Virus record (IMG/VR): IMGVR_UViG_3300047564_006887
Coordinates: 1-20,698 of that record
Source of the DNA: a virus
Reading direction: 5' to 3' (one strand)
Length of the DNA stretch: 20,698 nt
Under the pieces are notes generated by a model that saw only the letters and a list, made by a program, of their open reading frames with translations, did no database searches and was not told the origin of the DNA. Shown piece by piece: positions 8,150-15,124 of the stretch (position 1 is the stretch's first letter; each line of letters opens with the position of its first letter). The position numbers and the translations under genes were made by a program.

Positions 8150-8542
8150 TTATTTGTTTGACTCACAAATTCCAAAAATACGCTTTTCGTCAAGAAAGAT
8201 TACTGTTTTGTTGCCTTTTTGAATACCAACAATTCCTTTATCTCCTGGAAAGATAATATGTTGTCCTACTTTAACTTGCTGAGTGTGAGGACCAACAAGC
8301 AATACCTTACCAATTCTCCAAGCTTTTTTATCAACAACTTCGTGGGGAAGAATGATGCCGTTACGTATTAATGATTTTCCGTCTTGGGCTACATCTGCAT
8401 ATTCAGCCATGATTATGTCTCCAAGAAGTTCTGTAATTTCATAATCTTCTGGCAAAGGACAATCTTGATATGGATCGAGGTCTCCGAGGCCGTTATTTTC
8501 GCGAGGAAGGATTGGTAAGCTTGGTAAGGATATATTACTCAT
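8150..8542 (-). CDS. GroES-like co-chaperonin (functional analogue of T4 gp31)
   Basis: After a 35-residue polar N-terminus, residues 36-126 follow the GroES pattern. There is a first strand with 'LLGDIIMAEY', then a mobile-loop-like stretch GKSLIRNGIILPHE (55-68) whose IIL resembles the GroES IVL tripeptide that docks on GroEL. 'WRIGKVLLVGPHTQQVKVGQHIIF' (75-98) corresponds to the GroES 'G-x-V-x-x-VG-x-G...VKVGD-x-V-x-F' block, and the end (VIFLDEKRIFGI) matches 'y-l-l-v-x-e-x-d-I-l-a-i'. T4 needs its own gp31 because host GroES cannot help fold gp23. Here the gene lies 1.4 kb from gene 23, which supports the same job. It is the first gene of a three-gene - strand operon. I see no clear Shine-Dalgarno. 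Confidence 0.82.
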   Translation of the reverse strand: MSNISLPSLPILPRENNGLGDLDPYQDCPLPEDYEITELLGDIIMAEYADVAQDGKSLIRNGIILPHEVVDKKAWRIGKVLLVGPHTQQVKVGQHIIFPGDKGIVGIQKGNKTVIFLDEKRIFGICESNK

Positions 8543-8589: not shown

Positions 8590-8805
8590 ATGTTCAATAC
8601 ACCTAAAGACGTTCTTCTTATTGCCGAAGCTTATAGTGCTGTTTTAGAAGCTAAGGCAGCAAAGCCAGACTACATTGATATTGATGGTGACGGAAATAAA
8701 AAAGAATCAATGAAAAAAGCTGCTACTGATAAAAAGAAAAAGCCAACAGCTAAAAAAGAAAGTTTGACTTTCAGAGAACTCTACGCTTCAGTCATCAACG
8801 ACTAA
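8590..8805 (+). CDS. Small basic protein with D-x-D-x-DG loop
   Basis: I chose the ATG at 8590 (71 aa, MFNTPKDVLLIAEAYSAVLE...). An in-frame GTG at 8569 would add seven residues but overlaps the divergent promoter. The N-terminal helix contains LIAE|A, a gp21-type cleavage site. Next comes DYIDIDGDGNKKESMKKA, a D-x-D-x-DG calcium-loop-like motif (EF-hand or dockerin style, with the normal position-12 Glu displaced), then a Lys-rich stretch and a final helix (LTFRELYASVIND). The 'D-(I/L)-D-x-DGNKKE-x-MKKA' string is familiar from small proteins of marine T4-like phages with no defined role. It is convergent with the gp62-like gene and the stops overlap. It is a candidate internal head protein (inference). 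Confidence 0.7.
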   Translation: MFNTPKDVLLIAEAYSAVLEAKAAKPDYIDIDGDGNKKESMKKAATDKKKKPTAKKESLTFRELYASVIND

Positions 8806-9137
8806 CTTACTAAGTAACCAACATCTCTCTTAGAGAGTTCGAGGTTTTGAGCAAGTAAAGATACAAGTTTACTCTCTTCTGTTTCTTCTTCTTTTACCTT
8901 TTTAACGTAATTGATGCGTGGCATATACTTCATTTTGGGAAACAAAGAAATCATTGTTTTGTAATGAAGCTCCTTATTCTCGAGAAGAGTTTTTGTGTTT
9001 ATTATATTAAGAGACTCTGCTACAGTGGGGTTCATAAAGCTCAACCATCTTGTAACAAGATAAGGAACATATTGCTCTAAAGGCAAATTTCCTTTTTTGC
9101 TAACTACAATATCTTTTAGATAATCAAAGATTGTCAC
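8802..9137 (-). CDS. Clamp-loader small subunit-like protein (gp62-like)
   Basis: I chose GTG at 9137 because it yields MTIFDYLKDIVVSKKG, like the usual 'MT-(I/L)-FD-(F/Y)-L' start of related phage proteins; a GTG at 9158 would add seven residues. The body shows 'YVPYLVTRWLSFMNP' then 'LHYKTMISLFPKMKYMPRINYVKK', and a C-terminal 'LAQNLELSKRDVGYL'. This is similar in layout to the small clamp-loader subunit gp62 of T4-like phages ('Y-x-PY-x-V-x-R-x-LS...Y-x-x-L...P-K-x-K...KK'). T4 gp62 works with gp44 to load the gp45 sliding clamp at replication forks. It is shorter than T4 gp62 (187 aa). It overlaps the upstream gene by 14 nt. The assignment is by remembered pattern and is moderate. Confidence 0.55.
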   Translation of the reverse strand: MTIFDYLKDIVVSKKGNLPLEQYVPYLVTRWLSFMNPTVAESLNIINTKTLLENKELHYKTMISLFPKMKYMPRINYVKKVKEEETEESKLVSLLAQNLELSKRDVGYLVS

Positions 9138-9657
9138 GTTGTGTTTCGAGAAACACACTTTTCAGCATAGAATGAAAACTAGCAATAGTTTCTGTCGAAA
9201 GCTGTTCAATCTTTTCATCTTCGAGATCAAAAGTGTGCAATTGTTGTTCTGTGTTTTTAATTTCTAAAGGTAGTAAGATATGAGTTAACATAGAATCTTT
9301 AACCTTGTTATTAATAATAATCGAAGACTGTTTATTTTCTACTAGCAAATGGCCTTCGTAAACATACGCATCCGTTCCAATAAGTGTCGTTAAAATGGAA
9401 CCTAGTTGAGCAGCGTAAAGTCTTTGGAAACACACTCCTCCAAAAATATTAATATTTGGAATCTCGTAAGCAACCACAAAGCATTTATCAATTGTTAAAG
9501 GACCAACTTTTGTAGGAGCAACAAAAGTTATAATATTACCCAAGCTCTGAAGTTCGTCCTGAAAAACATGGTAAGCAAACTTGTTCTTAACTAAAGAACA
9601 TTCGTAAAAGCCGCTGTCTTGTATTAGTGTTTTAACTGTTTGGTCGCTAAGTTTCAT
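9124..9657 (-). CDS. Unknown protein with DUF366-like pattern
   Basis: This 177-aa protein is not firmly recognised. The order of motifs is LGNIITFVAP (38-47), then an 'RLYAAQLGSIL' helix, then 'DAYVYEGHLLVENKQSSIII' and 'SMLTHILLPLEIKN'. It resembles the archaeal DUF366 family as I remember it ('LGD-x-x-VAFIGP...RL...DDLY-x-x-GRKLSVSIAT...IH-x-x-LNI'). DUF366 has no proven reaction that I can cite. The gene is coupled by ATGA to the glycosyltransferase and sits in the transglycosylase cassette, so a part in nucleobase or DNA modification is a reasonable guess. A profile comparison would settle the family. Confidence 0.6.
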   Translation of the reverse strand: MKLSDQTVKTLIQDSGFYECSLVKNKFAYHVFQDELQSLGNIITFVAPTKVGPLTIDKCFVVAYEIPNINIFGGVCFQRLYAAQLGSILTTLIGTDAYVYEGHLLVENKQSSIIINNKVKDSMLTHILLPLEIKNTEQQLHTFDLEDEKIEQLSTETIASFHSMLKSVFLETQRDNL

Positions 9658-10325
9658 TTGCAGTATGTTTCTTTAAAAAGATTGTTTGCTTCTTCCCATT
9701 GAGATGTAAGCATAGAGTCTCCTAATCCGTGATGTACAACATGCAATGGTAGTACACCGCAAGATACACGCTTTTCATTTGCTCTCAAACAAAAAGCAAT
9801 GTCATAAAAATGAAACCCAAAAGCTTCATCAAAATAAAGCTCTTTCTCAATTAAGTCCATTACTTTACAAGAAATAAACAAACCATCAACAAGCAAAGCT
9901 CTTGAGTTTGTTGGACCGAAGACTGTGGTCCAAACTTTACCTTCTGGATTAGTATGTCCTGCTTCACCTACCCAGTCGTTTCGATCTGAAGCTAAATGCC
10001 AGGCTAGTTTAGGTTGTGTTTTATCAAATGATTTAGTTCCAGCAATTCCTGTAATTGAATAAGGGCTTGCTAAGAGCTTTTCTACTAAAAACAAGTCTTG
10101 CAGTTCAACATCATCGTGAACAAACAACACCGTTTTATTGAAATTACTGGCATCTTTTAGTATTTCATTGTAGCATTGAGACAACCCTTTTTGATTGTCT
10201 TTAAAGACGTAAAAATCAGCTTTGCCTGCGTCTACATACTCTTGCAAGCCGTTATACACGGGACGTGTTGCAAATTCTTCCAGTGTTTTTGCTTTTGTGC
10301 AAGTAACAATTAATAGTTTACTCAT
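9654..10325 (-). CDS. GT-A type glycosyltransferase
   Basis: This 223-aa protein follows the phage/bacterial GT2-like 'Glyco_tranf_2_5' pattern. It has an N-terminal beta strand and nucleotide-binding region, then FVHDDVEL (68-75) with the acidic DxD-like metal/sugar-nucleotide site. 'YSITGIAGTKSF' follows, then 'LLVDGLFISC' (144-153), and a 'FHFYDIAFCLRA' acceptor/catalytic block (171-182) before 'VLPLHVVHHGLGD'. No membrane segment is present, so it should be cytoplasmic. It overlaps the transglycosylase-like gene by ATGA upstream and the next gene by ATGA downstream. This tight coupling suggests a shared pathway, possibly decoration of a modified base. It could instead modify a surface glycan or a phage protein; the sequence alone does not tell the acceptor. 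Confidence 0.82.
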   Translation of the reverse strand: MSKLLIVTCTKAKTLEEFATRPVYNGLQEYVDAGKADFYVFKDNQKGLSQCYNEILKDASNFNKTVLFVHDDVELQDLFLVEKLLASPYSITGIAGTKSFDKTQPKLAWHLASDRNDWVGEAGHTNPEGKVWTTVFGPTNSRALLVDGLFISCKVMDLIEKELYFDEAFGFHFYDIAFCLRANEKRVSCGVLPLHVVHHGLGDSMLTSQWEEANNLFKETYCK

Positions 10326-11113
10326 ATACTACCGTAAGTCTTTTTAAGATATTGAATGTTTTTAACAGCAAGCGTTTGCTGTTCATCGGTTAATTTGTGA
10401 TCAAAGTAAGCATTTGTAGTTGGAATACGTGTCAAATTTCCGCTCTCAAAGCTAATTCCGTTAATAGCAGCTAGGATTGTATAACAGCTATCCGAGCTAC
10501 GAATACAAGGAATTTTATTTTCCAAATAATATTGAAACTCATTATGTTCTCCCATTCCTAGCAAATGCAAAGGTTTTTTTAGCCATGATCTTGCATGTAG
10601 CTCCTGTATGCATTCGTTCCGAGACTTAGCAATGTCTACATCTCCTTCTGCATTATTCCAACACTTTGGAACAGCAATTTTACTCAAACCAATAGTGGAT
10701 ACCATTGGATTCAATAACATATTGTAATAACACTCTAACCACTCTTCAATGGTTGTGCCTTGAGGACATCCGAAAATTTTAGTGTTTTTAGTGTAACCTT
10801 TATCAATCATTTTAACTGTAAAGAAGTATAGATTATTTGATGTTTGCTTGTAATCAAAAAGGATGTCTGGAGCAATTACTTCGTTTGGTTTTAGCTCAGC
10901 AACAATATCCAACAAAATGTTTTCAGTAACTAGACTGTGTTCTGCCGCTCCGTTGTCAAGAGTAATAAAAGCTCCTGGAATGTTAGCTCGTACATCTAAA
11001 AAATAATTTCTATAGTTTTCATCAGAAAGATAATGGTGAGCTAAAGCAAAATAGCGATCACCTTGATGCATTAAATCAAGATGTTTATTTGGAGGTATTG
11101 CGTAAAAATCCAT
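10322..11113 (-). CDS. tRNA-guanine transglycosylase-like protein (DpdA-like)
   Basis: This 263-aa protein shows the TGT-superfamily barrel signature. FITLDNGAAE (49-58) corresponds to the 'DSGG' block, with Asp53 as the general-acid/base position. 'VIAPDILFD' follows. 'KIFGCPQGTTIEEW' (112-125) corresponds to the QG substrate loop, and 'STIGLSKIAVP' to the 'IGG' strand. 'PLHLLGMGEHNEF' (181-193) corresponds to 'RYLMGVG', and 'IRSSDSC' (204-210) holds Asp208 at the nucleophile position. The zinc-binding CxCxxC...H module of true tRNA enzymes is absent and the protein is short, as in phage DpdA proteins that swap guanine in DNA for 7-deazaguanines. Its partners (T-fold protein, kinase, glycosyltransferase, all coupled or within 1-2 nt) support a base-modification cassette. 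DNA rather than tRNA as the substrate is inference. Confidence 0.82.
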   Translation of the reverse strand: MDFYAIPPNKHLDLMHQGDRYFALAHHYLSDENYRNYFLDVRANIPGAFITLDNGAAEHSLVTENILLDIVAELKPNEVIAPDILFDYKQTSNNLYFFTVKMIDKGYTKNTKIFGCPQGTTIEEWLECYYNMLLNPMVSTIGLSKIAVPKCWNNAEGDVDIAKSRNECIQELHARSWLKKPLHLLGMGEHNEFQYYLENKIPCIRSSDSCYTILAAINGISFESGNLTRIPTTNAYFDHKLTDEQQTLAVKNIQYLKKTYGSI

Positions 11114-11114
11114 A

Positions 11115-11540
11115 TTATTTCCGTTCTAGAATATATTGTTTAACTTCTAAAATTCCTAAATCAACATCTCCTTGATCTGCTGTTTCAAAAGTAGCACTAT
11201 CTCCATCTCGTGCTCGCAAGCTGTATCTAGCTTTTCTAGTCTTAGTTGGACATTCAATCCACAATAAAGTTGCTTCAGGAAAAGCTTTTAAGATGTCAAC
11301 TTGTCTTGGACCTGAAGCAACAATCTGTTTTGGAAACAGTTCATTCAAACTCAAAGTAAGCTGAGAAACAATTTCAGACGATAAATCCTTTGAGTCTTGA
11401 AGAATCTTTCTATCTTGTGTTTGTTTAATTCTTCGAACAATATCTCCAATTTCAATATAAACTCCATCACAAACGTTAGCATAAGCTTTTGCAAATGAAG
11501 TCTTACCACAGCAAAGCTGACCACAAATAAAAGTAATCAT
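11115..11540 (-). CDS. P-loop nucleotide/nucleoside kinase
   Basis: This 141-aa protein starts with a Walker A motif, ICGQLCCGKTSFAKAY (5-20), near the N-terminus. The C-terminal segment RYSLRARDGDSATFETADQGDVDLGI (105-130) resembles the lid and 'R-x-R-D...TFEE-x-x-x-D-x-x-LG' region of dephospho-CoA or deoxynucleotide kinases. 'LLWIECP' (92-98) is the usual core strand. It probably phosphorylates a nucleotide or a nucleoside precursor. The substrate cannot be read; the context suggests supply of a modified nucleotide or turnover of the released base or nucleoside. It overlaps the T-fold gene by ATGA and lies 1 nt before the transglycosylase-like gene. It is short but appears complete. Confidence 0.78.
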   Translation of the reverse strand: MITFICGQLCCGKTSFAKAYANVCDGVYIEIGDIVRRIKQTQDRKILQDSKDLSSEIVSQLTLSLNELFPKQIVASGPRQVDILKAFPEATLLWIECPTKTRKARYSLRARDGDSATFETADQGDVDLGILEVKQYILERK

Positions 11541-11875
11541 TTATATACTCTACTACCATTTTCGTTATCTTCAAGTACCTCAACAAACTCACAATCAAAC
11601 ATATTTAAAAGATGTTGAGCTAGCATTTCACATGACCAATTTTGAAGATTTCCTTCAAATTTTTCTTTCAAAAAGAGTTCAACCTTTTGTTTAAAATCAA
11701 TGATTTCAATATCTCTGTCATTGTGTAATACAGTTTTTTCAAGAGTAATGTAAAAGAGGTGTCTGTGAGGATATTGCAAGAAATGAATATGTGTCTTTTC
11801 TGGCATTGCTTCTACCACACCTGGCCAGTTATGAGTAGCTTCATATTGAAGCTTAACAACAATAGTAGTTTTCAT
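11537..11875 (-). CDS. QueD/PTPS-like T-fold protein lacking the usual catalytic Cys
   Basis: I chose ATG at 11875 (112 aa); an in-frame TTG at 11893 lies inside the promoter. The layout is that of the 6-carboxytetrahydropterin synthase (QueD)/PTPS tunnelling fold. 'EATHNWPG' supplies His15, and 'YPHRHLFYI' supplies His37 and His39, the three likely zinc ligands. 'DRDIEIIDFKQKVELFL' corresponds to the 'D-F-x-x-L-K' helix, 'WSCEMLAQHLL' to 'P-T-x-E-N-x-A', and VLEDNENG to the pterin-anchoring Glu region. The catalytic Cys normally between the first His and the HxH pair is missing. It may therefore run a different reaction on a pterin or 7-deazaguanine, or only bind one. It is first in a six-gene coupled cassette containing a TGT-like enzyme. 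Confidence 0.75.
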   Translation of the reverse strand: MKTTIVVKLQYEATHNWPGVVEAMPEKTHIHFLQYPHRHLFYITLEKTVLHNDRDIEIIDFKQKVELFLKEKFEGNLQNWSCEMLAQHLLNMFDCEFVEVLEDNENGSRVYK

Positions 11876-11882
11876 TGCAACT

Positions 11883-11910
11883 ACTATACACAAATACCTA
11901 AGTTATTCAA
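11883..11910 (-). promoter_or_regulatory. TTGAAT - 16 bp - TATAGT promoter of the modification cassette
   Basis: On the - strand, TTGAAT (11910-11905) overlaps the stop codon of the upstream adhesin gene. It is followed by a 16-bp spacer, TATAGT (11888-11883) and, 7 nt later, the ATG at 11875. The same 16-bp spacing and very short leader occur in front of three other non-structural units. Confidence 0.45.
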
Positions 11911-13823
11911 CCTATAATTGATGGAACTGGAAGATTGTTTAGTCTATCAACCCAAACTTCATACGTCAAATTAACCGGTAAATCTGCAGAAAGTGTGCTT
12001 ATATAAGCTTCTGGTTGAGTGTCGTTGTAAAGAATAGCCCACTTTTTATAGTGTGGAGAAGATGAATCCAGTAACCATGCAACGTAACATTCTTCTGGTT
12101 CGTTTTTATAATACTCATAAGAACTAGTTTGCAGAGTGTAAGTTCCATTCAATGCTGTTAGTCCAGCTCCGTTAACGGTTATATTAGCCAAGCTTGGAAA
12201 ATTAGGTTTTAAGGAGTTGTCTGTTGGAAAAGATATATTTCCTGAAGGTAAATTAGCTTGAAGTGGAGATAAAGCTATCTCTCCTCCAAAGGCGATATCT
12301 CCTCCCGTACCCAGAATTTCAAAATCATGCAATCTAAATACCCCAAGAGTACTAGAAGCTTGATACGGAACATAAGCAAGCGTTAAAGTATTACCAGGAA
12401 CAATCTGAGGCGTAGTAATATTATACAAAGGCTGAGAACACTCAGTACAACCAATAGTGCTGGTGTCTGTAACTGGACTGTTAGCTAATTGTATATAACT
12501 ACCATTGTTTATTTTGTAGAATAAAGCTGCTGAAACAGGACCCGTACTTGATCTTGAAGTGACAAAACCTTTACAGCTTGTAAGTCTAAAATATGTAGAT
12601 TGTGTAGCTCCACTAACAGTAAAAAAGAAAGCTTTATTGTTAGCAAGAGCATCCGTGGCACTCGATGTACTAAATCTACGAGCTGACCAAGCATCTGCAG
12701 CACCGAGTGATCCAGCTTCTTCTAAACCGGTTCCAGCTCCACTATTATAAACGGGTCTTGTTAAAGGAGATACAACAAGTAAATTGTTGTTTATTGGATT
12801 AACAGTAGAAATTGTTGAGTTTAGCCCACGAACAGAACTTAGGTTATAACTAATTGTGTATATTTCTGGTATTATTGGACATGTCATTAAAAACGACCAA
12901 CTATTAAATGTTTCTTGTATGGGACTGTAAGCAGAAAAATACACTGTTGGTGTTGTTGATGTCTTTTCAAAAATTAAATCAAAATTTCCTCTCGAGTCAG
13001 TATCAGAAGGAGCTCCACAATCATTACACTGAATAATTGGAGGAGGTACTGGCAATCCGACATTTGTATGTGCTGTATTAATTTGAGTTTGATAACTGCT
13101 TGAGCCTCTATAAAAAGTATCCAAAACAATATTGTTATCTATTGAAAATTGCAATCTATCTGGAGCAGAATTCATCGAACCTTTTACTCTAACAAAGCCT
13201 AGATCATTACCTAGAGTTACGTTACCAATAAACGGCACAGGAAAGAAACTTCCCGTTTGATAAAAATTGAGAACAGAACCACAAGAAACTAAAGAAGTAA
13301 TTGATGGAGTTGGAGTAGGAGAAGGACTTGGCGAAGGACTTGGCGAAGGACTTGGAGACGGACTCGGGGAAGGAGAGGGGGTTGGAGTAGGAGAAGGAGT
13401 TGTAGATGGAGAAGGACTTGGAGTAGGAGAAGGAGTTGGAGAAGGACTAGAACTTGGTGTCGGACTTGGACTTGGAGATGGAGAAGGACTTGGAGTTGGA
13501 CTAAGACTCGGAGAAGGTGACGGAGTTGGAGATGGGGAAGGACTAGGAGTTGGAGAAGGAGTTGGGGAAGGAGACGGTGAAGGGCTAGGACTCGGAGAAG
13601 GGGATGGTGAAGGAGAAGGAGAGGGACTTGGCGTAGGTGTTGGTGTGCCACTTTGTGTCGGAGACGGTGAAGGACTTGGAGAAGGCGTAGGAGTTGGAAA
13701 CGGTGTAGCTGAAGGCATTGGAGTTGGTGGCTCCGGAAATACTCTAGAATTTTTAATTTTTCCGGTAACATCAGTACCGGTTTTTAATAATTCAACTCTC
13801 TCTCTTAAACTTGGATCATTCAT
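11907..13823 (-). CDS. Large adhesin with Pro/Ser/Thr linker (638 aa)
   Basis: Residues 1-36 form a short N-terminal segment ([16 protein letters not shown]...). Residues about 37-172 are an almost pure PSPS/PTPS linker, and residues 173-638 are beta-rich. The beta region includes '[20 protein letters not shown]' and two CxxC pairs (CNDC near 260, CTEC near 460), plus '[20 protein letters not shown]', a pattern seen in extracellular and adhesin-like beta-sandwiches. No signal peptide is present, as expected for a virion protein. Its start overlaps the gp15 stop by ATGA and it shares its N-terminal layout with the left-edge adhesin. I infer a tail- or neck-attached, long-stalked binding protein. 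A structural role without receptor binding is also possible. Confidence 0.8.
13308..13715 (-). repeat. Low-complexity PSPS/PTPS-coding repeat
   Basis: About 400 bp of imperfect 6-bp units (on the + strand GGAGAA, GGACTT and GGAGTT variants) encode a roughly 136-residue Pro/Ser/Thr linker in the 638-aa adhesin. Synonymous codons vary between units, so selection appears to act on the protein rather than the DNA. Such tracts change length readily by slippage or recombination and may be mis-assembled. Confidence 0.85.
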
Positions 13824-15124
13824 ACTGTTGGCGATGGACTTGGTGTTGGTGTGGGTACTGGAGTACTACTCTGAGTTGGAGTTGGTGTAGGCGTTGTGGC
13901 AAAAGTAGGACTAGGAAATGGAGTTGAAGTAGGTAGATTTGGACGAATGTAAATACCCGACAAATACGGCATTTGATAAGGAATGTAAGCATTATATTGA
14001 GGAGTTCCACTAACAAACGGATTGTACGTGTTATATCTTACATATTGTGTTAATGAACCATAACCAACAGGACCTTCAACAATTACATCTACATACCCCG
14101 TACTAACAGCTGAAGGCATAACAAACGTCAAATAGCTATCCCTGTCATAAGCCCAATAAGCAGGATCAATACGTACAGCCGTAAACGCAGGGTAGTCTGA
14201 AGATAACGTCGGAAACCCTGAAAACGGATTGAAAGTAGTTGTAATGTTTCCTAAAGAAGCTCCCGAAAGATATACATTTTTAATGACTTTGAACCCTGCT
14301 CCATACATGTTGAACTGTTTAATTTCTCCGATATCAGCAAACCACGGTTCAATTACTTTTGGCTGAGGAGGAACTCCAGACAAAAGGAAGTAATCAGTGT
14401 TTTCGTTACTACCTCCTGAAAGTGCGGCTTTGTAACTATCAGATAAAAGATATTCTGTTGGAATGCCTGGAGAATCAGCATTATAAGTTGTTTTAATTGT
14501 ATAGATTGATGCAATATCTTCTGCATTTATAGACTGGAACATCCAACCCTTGAAAGTAAAACTTAAATCGGCTATAACTTTTGCAACTTGATTCGCAGCA
14601 ATATCAAACGGATAACTTATGCTTACATTGCCGTCCCAAAAAACACTAGATCTTATTTCGTGGTCCGGTCTGTTTGGTGTTCTCCAAGAAACTACAAAAT
14701 ACGGATTAATATAAGGCAGAATATGGGAAATAATTTGATCCATGTCTGTTTGATAACGAGTAGCAATTGTAACGTTAATTTGTAAATCAACTGGGAGAGG
14801 CGTTGCTTCATTGCGTACAAAGGCTCCAGCACTTGATGACGAATACGTACCTAAAATTTTGTTGTATACGCGGTTTGTGTCTCTAGAAATACCTCCAATA
14901 TACACAGCTACTACAGGAAGTTGCAAGTTTTGATCCTTGTCAAGAATATCAGCCAAAACTCTTTGTTTTGGTGCATAAACAAGCCGGGTTTTAATCTTAT
15001 CTTGTGGCTGTCTATTTTTATTATAGCGGTTAACAATGATGTCGCTCAACGCGTTCATAAACATTGTCACCATCGTTTGAATCTCAAAATCAAACGTATG
15101 AGGTCTTTTTAGATAGCCAGACAT
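13820..15124 (-). CDS. 15: Tail sheath stabiliser (gp15-like) with C-terminal extension
   Basis: Residues 1-215 follow T4 gp15, the tail terminator that caps the contracted sheath and joins the tail to the neck. Shared features are '[18 protein letters not shown]' (44-61), '[14 protein letters not shown]' (69-82), [20 protein letters not shown] with [13 protein letters not shown] (111-143), '[10 protein letters not shown]' (187-196) and 'IKTTYNAD' (210-217). T4 gp15 has 272 residues; this protein has 434. The extra part is a beta segment at about 265-365 ([20 protein letters not shown]...[12 protein letters not shown]), which resembles an IPT/TIG-type immunoglobulin-like domain, followed by a PT-rich tail (398-434). 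The next gene starts within the stop codon and also has a PT linker, so the two proteins may form one external structure at the neck. Confidence 0.85.

What the first reader, a model, noticed from the sequence alone, without database searches (positions are those of the whole stretch)
8802..11875. Coupled cassette resembling a 7-deazaguanine-type DNA modification system
Six - strand genes overlap by a few bases or are 1 nt apart: a QueD/PTPS-like T-fold protein, P-loop kinase, TGT/DpdA-like transglycosylase, GT-A glycosyltransferase, DUF366-like protein and gp62-like subunit. The TGT-like protein has aligned Asp53/Asp208 positions and lacks the tRNA-enzyme zinc module. Established knowledge: phage DpdA proteins exchange guanine in DNA for 7-deazaguanines and protect against restriction. 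A set with a kinase, a glycosyltransferase and a replication subunit in one unit is not one I know. The product could be a new, possibly glycosylated, modified base. FolE, QueE and QueC are not in this window, so the precursor would come from the host or from elsewhere in the genome.
Basis: partly seen in the sequence, partly recalled or inferred. Interest (0 to 1): 0.88.

Follow-up and report, generated by a model that had tools for sequence, protein, structure and literature searches.

The report
Phage guanine-swapping cassette with nucleotide kinase
A T4-like phage carries a tightly packed gene set that probably swaps the guanine of DNA for a 7-deazaguanine, and comparison of about 190 related loci suggests that, unlike the best-studied systems, the swap is made on the free building block (dGMP) before DNA is copied, by an enzyme that nearly always sits beside its own nucleotide kinase.

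Summary
In detail: six minus-strand genes, 8802-11875, overlapping or 1 nt apart. The 263-aa protein has a tRNA-guanine-transglycosylase fold (AlphaFold pLDDT 94; all 50 best PDB matches listed are TGTs), keeps both catalytic aspartates and lacks the zinc module. It is a divergent branch of the small phage guanine transglycosylases of Campylobacter phage CP220 and Flavobacterium phage immuto ('DpdA3', name from memory). T-fold, kinase and transglycosylase also occur together in Cellulophaga phage phiST and Chryseobacterium phage MA9V-3, with QueD, QueE and FolE; window-clade contigs G004 and G007 carry QueD and QueE elsewhere. QueC is absent. T-fold and QueC exclude each other in 24 phages, so the route leaves the queuosine path at 7-carboxy-7-deazaguanine. 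New point: 62 of 64 non-redundant small-DpdA loci have a nucleotide kinase within 2.5 kb (four assigned kinase families), against 2 of 40 DpdA1/DpdA2 loci. I therefore favour base exchange on dGMP followed by phosphorylation to the dNTP, which fits the reported 100% replacement in CP220; replacement in DNA after replication is the main rival. A glycosyltransferase is fixed in the window clade; glycosylated 7-deazaguanine is plausible but chemically unresolved. No activity was tested.

The parts
11537..11875 (-). T-fold, QueD-like protein (phrog_17812); takes the place of QueC, probably acts on 7-carboxy-7-deazaguanine (fits the decarboxylase named DpdL, recalled, not checked)
   Evidence: metal-triad candidates H21/H43/H45 invariant in 36 sequences; mutually exclusive with QueC; weak profile match to QueD
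11115..11540 (-). P-loop kinase of the UPF0200 / adenylate-kinase-related family; proposed kinase of the 7-deazaguanine deoxynucleoside monophosphate
   Evidence: PDB 3h0k/3lw7, E 6e-7; AF2 pLDDT 93; best fold match 3lw7, AMP-bound; fused to the T-fold protein in G008, G009, G011, G012
10322..11113 (-). Small guanine transglycosylase (TGT barrel without zinc module, divergent branch of the CP220/immuto DpdA type); D208 nucleophile, D53 general acid/base, D83 and Q118 guanine recognition (roles by homology to TGT)
9654..10325 (-). GT-A type glycosyltransferase (PF13712), conserved HDD motif; possible sugar transfer to the modified base
   Evidence: always directly downstream of the transglycosylase in the window clade
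9124..9657 (-). DUF366-like protein, not found in L008, L024, L025 and L033; role unknown
8802..9158 (-). gp62-like clamp-loader small subunit, operon neighbour
   Evidence: phrog_225, E 3.8e-6

Best explanation
The cassette installs a 7-deazaguanine in phage DNA by a nucleotide-level route. QueD and QueE (with FolE from phage or host) make 7-carboxy-7-deazaguanine; there is no QueC, and the T-fold protein processes this base instead. The 263-aa transglycosylase exchanges the guanine of dGMP (free nucleotide) for the 7-deazaguanine through an Asp208-deoxyribosyl-phosphate intermediate; the adjacent kinase phosphorylates the product, the host completes the dNTP, and the polymerase incorporates it in place of dG. 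In this T4-like clade a glycosyltransferase may then decorate the base in DNA. The logic would parallel T4 hydroxymethyl-dCMP synthesis (gp42, gp1 kinase, then glucosylation). Shown: fold, catalytic residues, gene linkage, absence of QueC, kinase association. Inferred: the substrate (dGMP), the T-fold chemistry, glycosylation.
For: TGT fold and conserved active site. QueD+QueE in G004, G007, phiST, MA9V-3, G009-G012 and QueE in G008; FolE in most; QueC in none of 21 records searched. T-fold present in 16 genomes, QueC in 0 (or 1 weak partial match) of them; all 8 genomes without the T-fold have QueC (p about 1e-6 to 1e-5). Kinase within 2.5 kb: 16/17, 25/26 and 21/21 non-redundant loci of three small-DpdA clades, versus 0/12 DpdA1 and 2/28 DpdA2; by an unbiased Walker-A count 51/64 versus 0/40. 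The kinases belong to different families by clade (UPF0200; DNMK, the T4 gp1 family; AAA_28; DUF3310, the T7 gp1.7 nucleotide-kinase domain, PMC10700055, in RHph fused to the transglycosylase) with about 5 label changes on the tree. T-fold and kinase are fused in four contigs. MazG-like NTP pyrophosphohydrolase in 58/59 immuto-type loci, also in phiST and G010. CP220, whose transglycosylase is related (E 6e-13), has 100% of dG replaced (PMC8306585), whereas DpdA1 phage CAjan has about 32% and DpdA2 phage nt-1 about 0.1% (PMC6884629).
Against: No assay or mass spectrum exists for this phage. The abstract of Cui et al. 2023 (recalled, not readable here) concludes that insertion is post-replicative in all phages. 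TGT enzymes act on polymers, and nucleotide exchange by this fold is not documented to my knowledge. Gene neighbourhood is indirect: kinases could simply replenish dNTPs, and related loci are not independent (about five kinase origins at best). The kinase seeds were taken from neighbours of the small DpdA genes, which favours that group; the Walker-A count is unbiased but misses DUF3310. The T-fold assignment rests on a weak profile match and a His triad.
Confidence: 0.58

Rival explanations
1. Ordinary post-replicative system: the small transglycosylase exchanges guanine for the 7-deazaguanine in DNA, as concluded for phage DpdA enzymes, and the kinase only supports nucleotide supply.
For: Deletion of dpdA abolishes modification in CAjan, a DpdA1 phage (PMC6884629). 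The fold is that of a nucleic-acid-modifying enzyme. The GenBank annotation of the immuto homologue is DNA guanine transglycosylase.
Against: Does not explain why only this branch, and not DpdA1 or DpdA2, is tied to nucleotide kinases of different families, one of them fused, nor the reported complete replacement in CP220 (PMC8306585). The protein is little more than the barrel.
Confidence: 0.33
2. The kinase phosphorylates or activates a group on the base (for example the carboxylate of CDG) together with the T-fold protein, to which it is fused in some phages, and the transglycosylase then inserts the product into DNA.
For: T-fold/kinase fusion in G008, G009, G011, G012. A carboxylate can be a handle for DNA hypermodification (PMC12783734).
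Against: Kinase association also holds in CP220/immuto-type loci that lack the T-fold protein, and the kinase folds like NMP kinases.
Confidence: 0.06
3. The enzyme modifies tRNA or boosts host queuosine instead of DNA.
For: TGT fold; QueD and QueE present in relatives.
Against: No zinc module; profile scores place it with phage DpdA proteins, not with E. coli Tgt (weak match); no QueC in these genomes, which preQ1/queuosine needs.
Confidence: 0.03

Closest known systems
Small phage DNA guanine transglycosylase of CP220 (CPT_0056) and Flavobacterium phage immuto (DpdA3 as I recall the name from Cui et al. 2023)
   Same: Length about 260 aa, no zinc module, same invariant Asp/His/Arg positions, adjacent nucleotide kinase, 7-deazaguanine genes in the same genome
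   Different: 23-30% identity; the CP220 and immuto genomes have QueC and lack the T-fold protein, window type is the reverse; kinase family differs
Cellulophaga phage phiST gp036-gp042
   Same: Same T-fold, kinase and transglycosylase trio in the same order, 42% identity for the transglycosylase; QueD-QueE-FolE in front; no QueC
   Different: No glycosyltransferase or DUF366-like gene beside it; has a MazG-like pyrophosphohydrolase
DpdA2 system of Acidovorax phage ACP17
   Same: CDG route with the T-fold protein and without QueC, and a glycosyltransferase beside it
   Different: Another, larger transglycosylase family; GT-B type glycosyltransferase; no kinase
DpdA1 system of phages 9g and CAjan
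   Same: TGT-family enzyme inserting a 7-deazaguanine
   Different: QueC or Gat-QueC, preQ0-derived base, no kinase, partial replacement
T4 gp42/gp1/glucosyltransferase (own knowledge)
   Same: Proposed logic: modify the dNMP, phosphorylate with a dedicated kinase, glycosylate in DNA
   Different: Acts on cytosine by hydroxymethylation, unrelated enzymes

Membership tests
TGT/DpdA superfamily | TGT-type TIM barrel | tested here: met
   AF2 pLDDT 94.2, Foldseek best E 1.6e-7, all 50 best PDB rows are TGT
TGT/DpdA superfamily | Catalytic aspartates and guanine-recognition residues | tested here: met
   D53, D83, D208 invariant in 20 of 20; Q118 invariant in an alignment of 26; D208 aligns with E. 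coli Tgt D264
tRNA-guanine transglycosylase (Tgt) | CxCxxC...H zinc module | tested here: not met
   No CxCxxC motif in any of 20 sequences
Small phage DpdA (CP220/immuto type, 'DpdA3') | Sequence homology above chance | tested here: met
   A4 profile finds CP220 CPT_0056 at E 6e-13, RHph_I1_18 at 6e-11, Bakedbeans at 4e-9; nt-1, 9g and CAjan not found
Small phage DpdA (CP220/immuto type, 'DpdA3') | 7-deazaguanine precursor genes in the same genome | tested here: met
   QueD and QueE in G004 and G007 of the window clade, phiST, MA9V-3; not in the window fragment itself
Small phage DpdA (CP220/immuto type, 'DpdA3') | Modified (completely replaced) guanine in virion DNA | not testable with these tools
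   Needs LC-MS of virion DNA; complete replacement is reported for CP220 and CPt10 (PMC8306585)
preQ0-dependent systems (DpdA1 type) | QueC present | tested here: not met
   QueC in none of 21 records of this family
Nucleoside monophosphate kinase superfamily (kinase gene) | P-loop and NMP-kinase fold | tested here: met
   Conserved P-loop (G7, G12, K13), PDB 3lw7/3h0k and adenylate and UMP/CMP kinases as best matches
GT-A glycosyltransferase (PF13712) | Profile match and acidic motif | tested here: met
   11 of 11 members match, best E 3e-9; window protein 26.2 bits, cut-off 27; HDD motif invariant
QueD/PTPS T-fold | PTPS profile match | tested here: inconclusive
   No Pfam match for the window protein; hhalign to phage QueD Prob 53%; His triad conserved

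The most novel reading that the evidence does not exclude
The small DpdA branch is a mononucleotide (dGMP) guanine transglycosylase: phages convert the dGTP precursor pool to 7-deaza-dGTP with a transglycosylase plus dedicated kinase, giving complete guanine replacement, and this T4-like clade then glycosylates the 7-deazaguanine in DNA, a glycosylated 7-deazaguanine not described before to my knowledge.
Probability: 0.3. Interest if true: 0.9.

Novelty: new variant of a known kind. Interest (0 to 1): 0.76.

Why it matters
Complete versus partial guanine replacement in phage DNA lacks an explanation that I know of. A nucleotide-level exchange would explain it, would be a new substrate class for the TGT fold, and would supply enzymes that make 7-deaza-dNTPs in cells. 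It also makes the T-fold protein and two unrelated glycosyltransferase families testable as parts of a QueC-independent branch.

Tried and rejected
PDB sequence search with the transglycosylase profile found nothing useful, so fold comparison was used. phrog_887 does not detect the small DpdA of CP220. Similarity search of phages for the glycosyltransferase and the DUF366-like protein gave no match; PDB profiles for both were empty or insignificant. In one search the T-fold and kinase profiles merged because of fused proteins; they were separated. MazG by Pfam is found only in G010 and, below the cut-off, in phiST, so a dGTP-removing enzyme is not shown for the window clade. A tRNA role was rejected for lack of QueC and of the zinc module. 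Promoter-like sites were at shuffle level and terminator-like sites only slightly above it. Cui et al. 2023 and Crippen et al. 2019 are not held. Two paper searches for a nucleotide-level mechanism or DpdA3 found nothing on it.

Full report
What is there. The window is a 20.7-kb record of a T4-like phage (major head protein, head maturation protease, tail sheath stabilizer). The six genes are as described, in one minus-strand run with 4-nt, 4-nt, 4-nt and 35-nt overlaps and one 1-nt gap. The same order recurs in many IMG/VR contigs at 60-70% protein identity; in some a ThyX-like gene is inserted between T-fold and kinase. In L008, L024, L025 and L033 no DUF366-like gene was found between the glycosyltransferase and gp62.

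The transglycosylase. AlphaFold gives a confident model (pLDDT 94); the 50 best PDB matches listed are all tRNA-guanine transglycosylases. Across 20 divergent relatives D53, D83, R165, H183, L185-G186, D208 and N252 are invariant, and none has the zinc motif. A profile alignment to E. coli Tgt, weak in score, puts D208 on D264 and Q118 on its IIQG motif. The family profile finds CP220 CPT_0056 (E 6e-13), a Rhizobium phage protein (6e-11) and a Vibrio phage protein (4e-9), but not the DpdA of 9g or CAjan nor DpdA2 of nt-1. The CP220 protein is 44% identical to an immuto protein annotated as DNA guanine transglycosylase. So this is a new branch of that small DpdA type; I recall the name DpdA3 from Cui et al. 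2023, which is not held here.

The pathway. phiST has QueD, QueE, FolE, a MazG-like enzyme, T-fold, kinase and transglycosylase in a row; MA9V-3 has QueD, QueE and FolE nearby. Two long contigs of the window's own clade carry QueD and QueE elsewhere, one of them also FolE (QueD of G004). QueC was not found in any of 21 records. Across 24 phages the T-fold protein and QueC exclude each other, apart from one weak partial QueC match in D479. The T-fold protein therefore takes the place of QueC, and its likely substrate is 7-carboxy-7-deazaguanine. This fits a decarboxylase (DpdL in the abstract of Cui et al. as I recall it), but the chemistry is not shown.

The kinase. It is a P-loop enzyme whose best sequence and fold matches are the UPF0200 adenylate-kinase-related protein of Sulfolobus, solved with AMP, then adenylate and UMP/CMP kinases. 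In four contigs it is fused to the T-fold protein.

The pattern. Every kind of small DpdA examined lies by a nucleotide kinase, but the kinase family changes with the clade: UPF0200 in the window/phiST branch, DNMK (T4 gp1 family) in D479 and Ahp1, AAA_28 in CP220, immuto and CC_R7, and DUF3310 in RHph, where it is fused to the transglycosylase; the small P-loop protein in BSTP10 is unassigned. DUF3310 is linked to the nucleotide kinase of phage T7 (PMC10700055). In wider sets of IMG/VR loci, de-replicated at 85%, a kinase lies within 2.5 kb in 16/17, 25/26 and 21/21 loci of three small-DpdA clades, and in 0/12 DpdA1 and 2/28 DpdA2 loci (Fisher p 1.6e-23). Because the seeds came from small-DpdA neighbours, the unbiased Walker-A count is also given: 51/64 against 0/40. 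Loci share ancestry, so about five kinase origins is the honest number of events. MazG-like pyrophosphohydrolases accompany 58 of 59 immuto-type loci.

Interpretation. A dedicated dNMP kinase is what a phage needs when the modified nucleotide is made as a monophosphate, as in T4 (own knowledge). I therefore propose base exchange on dGMP. It would explain why CP220 has all dG replaced (PMC8306585) while DpdA1 phage CAjan has about 32% and DpdA2 phage nt-1 about 0.1% (PMC6884629). The published conclusion as I recall it is post-replicative insertion, and I have no biochemical data; I put the nucleotide route at 0.58 against 0.33 for the classical one.

The glycosyltransferase. All 11 relatives scanned match PF13712, and it always follows the transglycosylase in the window clade. 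Independently, 49 of 55 DpdA2 loci have both a T-fold protein and an unrelated GT-B glycosyltransferase, while the 4 DpdA2 loci with QueC have neither. This supports sugar transfer to a QueC-independent 7-deazaguanine, yet an unsubstituted 7-deazaguanine offers no hydroxyl, so either the T-fold product keeps a handle or the enzyme acts elsewhere.

Not explained. The roles of the DUF366-like protein and of gp62 in this run are open; gp62 is probably an operon neighbour.

Noticed in passing
L011:8877-9518 (also L009, L024): A ThyX-type thymidylate synthase gene is inserted between the T-fold and kinase genes in part of the clade, another link to nucleotide synthesis.
   Followed up: partly
DpdA2 loci L319-L398; L107:5963-7375: A widespread set of DpdA2, GT-B glycosyltransferase and T-fold protein (49 of 55 loci with both) without QueC nearby, a candidate for glycosylated 7-deazaguanine in phages.
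   Followed up: partly
L106:6236-7387 and L003:7647-8528: T-fold protein fused behind an N-terminal domain without clear Pfam match in Vibrio phage Bakedbeans (about 260 aa) and Chryseobacterium phage MA9V-3 (about 178 aa).
   Followed up: no
G004:85201-85884 and G007:40411-41082: A small P-loop protein, NadR-like by eye, lies near QueE in two window-clade contigs, a possible second kinase of the pathway.
   Followed up: no
window 8150-8542 (-): Cpn10/GroES-like co-chaperonin beside the cassette.
   Followed up: no
window 11907-13823 (-) and 13820-15124 (-): Long Pro-Ser/Thr-Pro repeat tract in a structural-looking protein, with a short related tract at the end of the tail-sheath-stabilizer-like protein upstream.
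   Followed up: no
G004:75145-80247: A run of ORFs that look like glycosyltransferases and a methyltransferase by eye, lying among replication genes.
   Followed up: no
G004:118415-118957, L125:4834-5229, phiST gp064: Purine-type phosphoribosyltransferases recur in these genomes and could recycle the guanine released by base exchange.
   Followed up: partly
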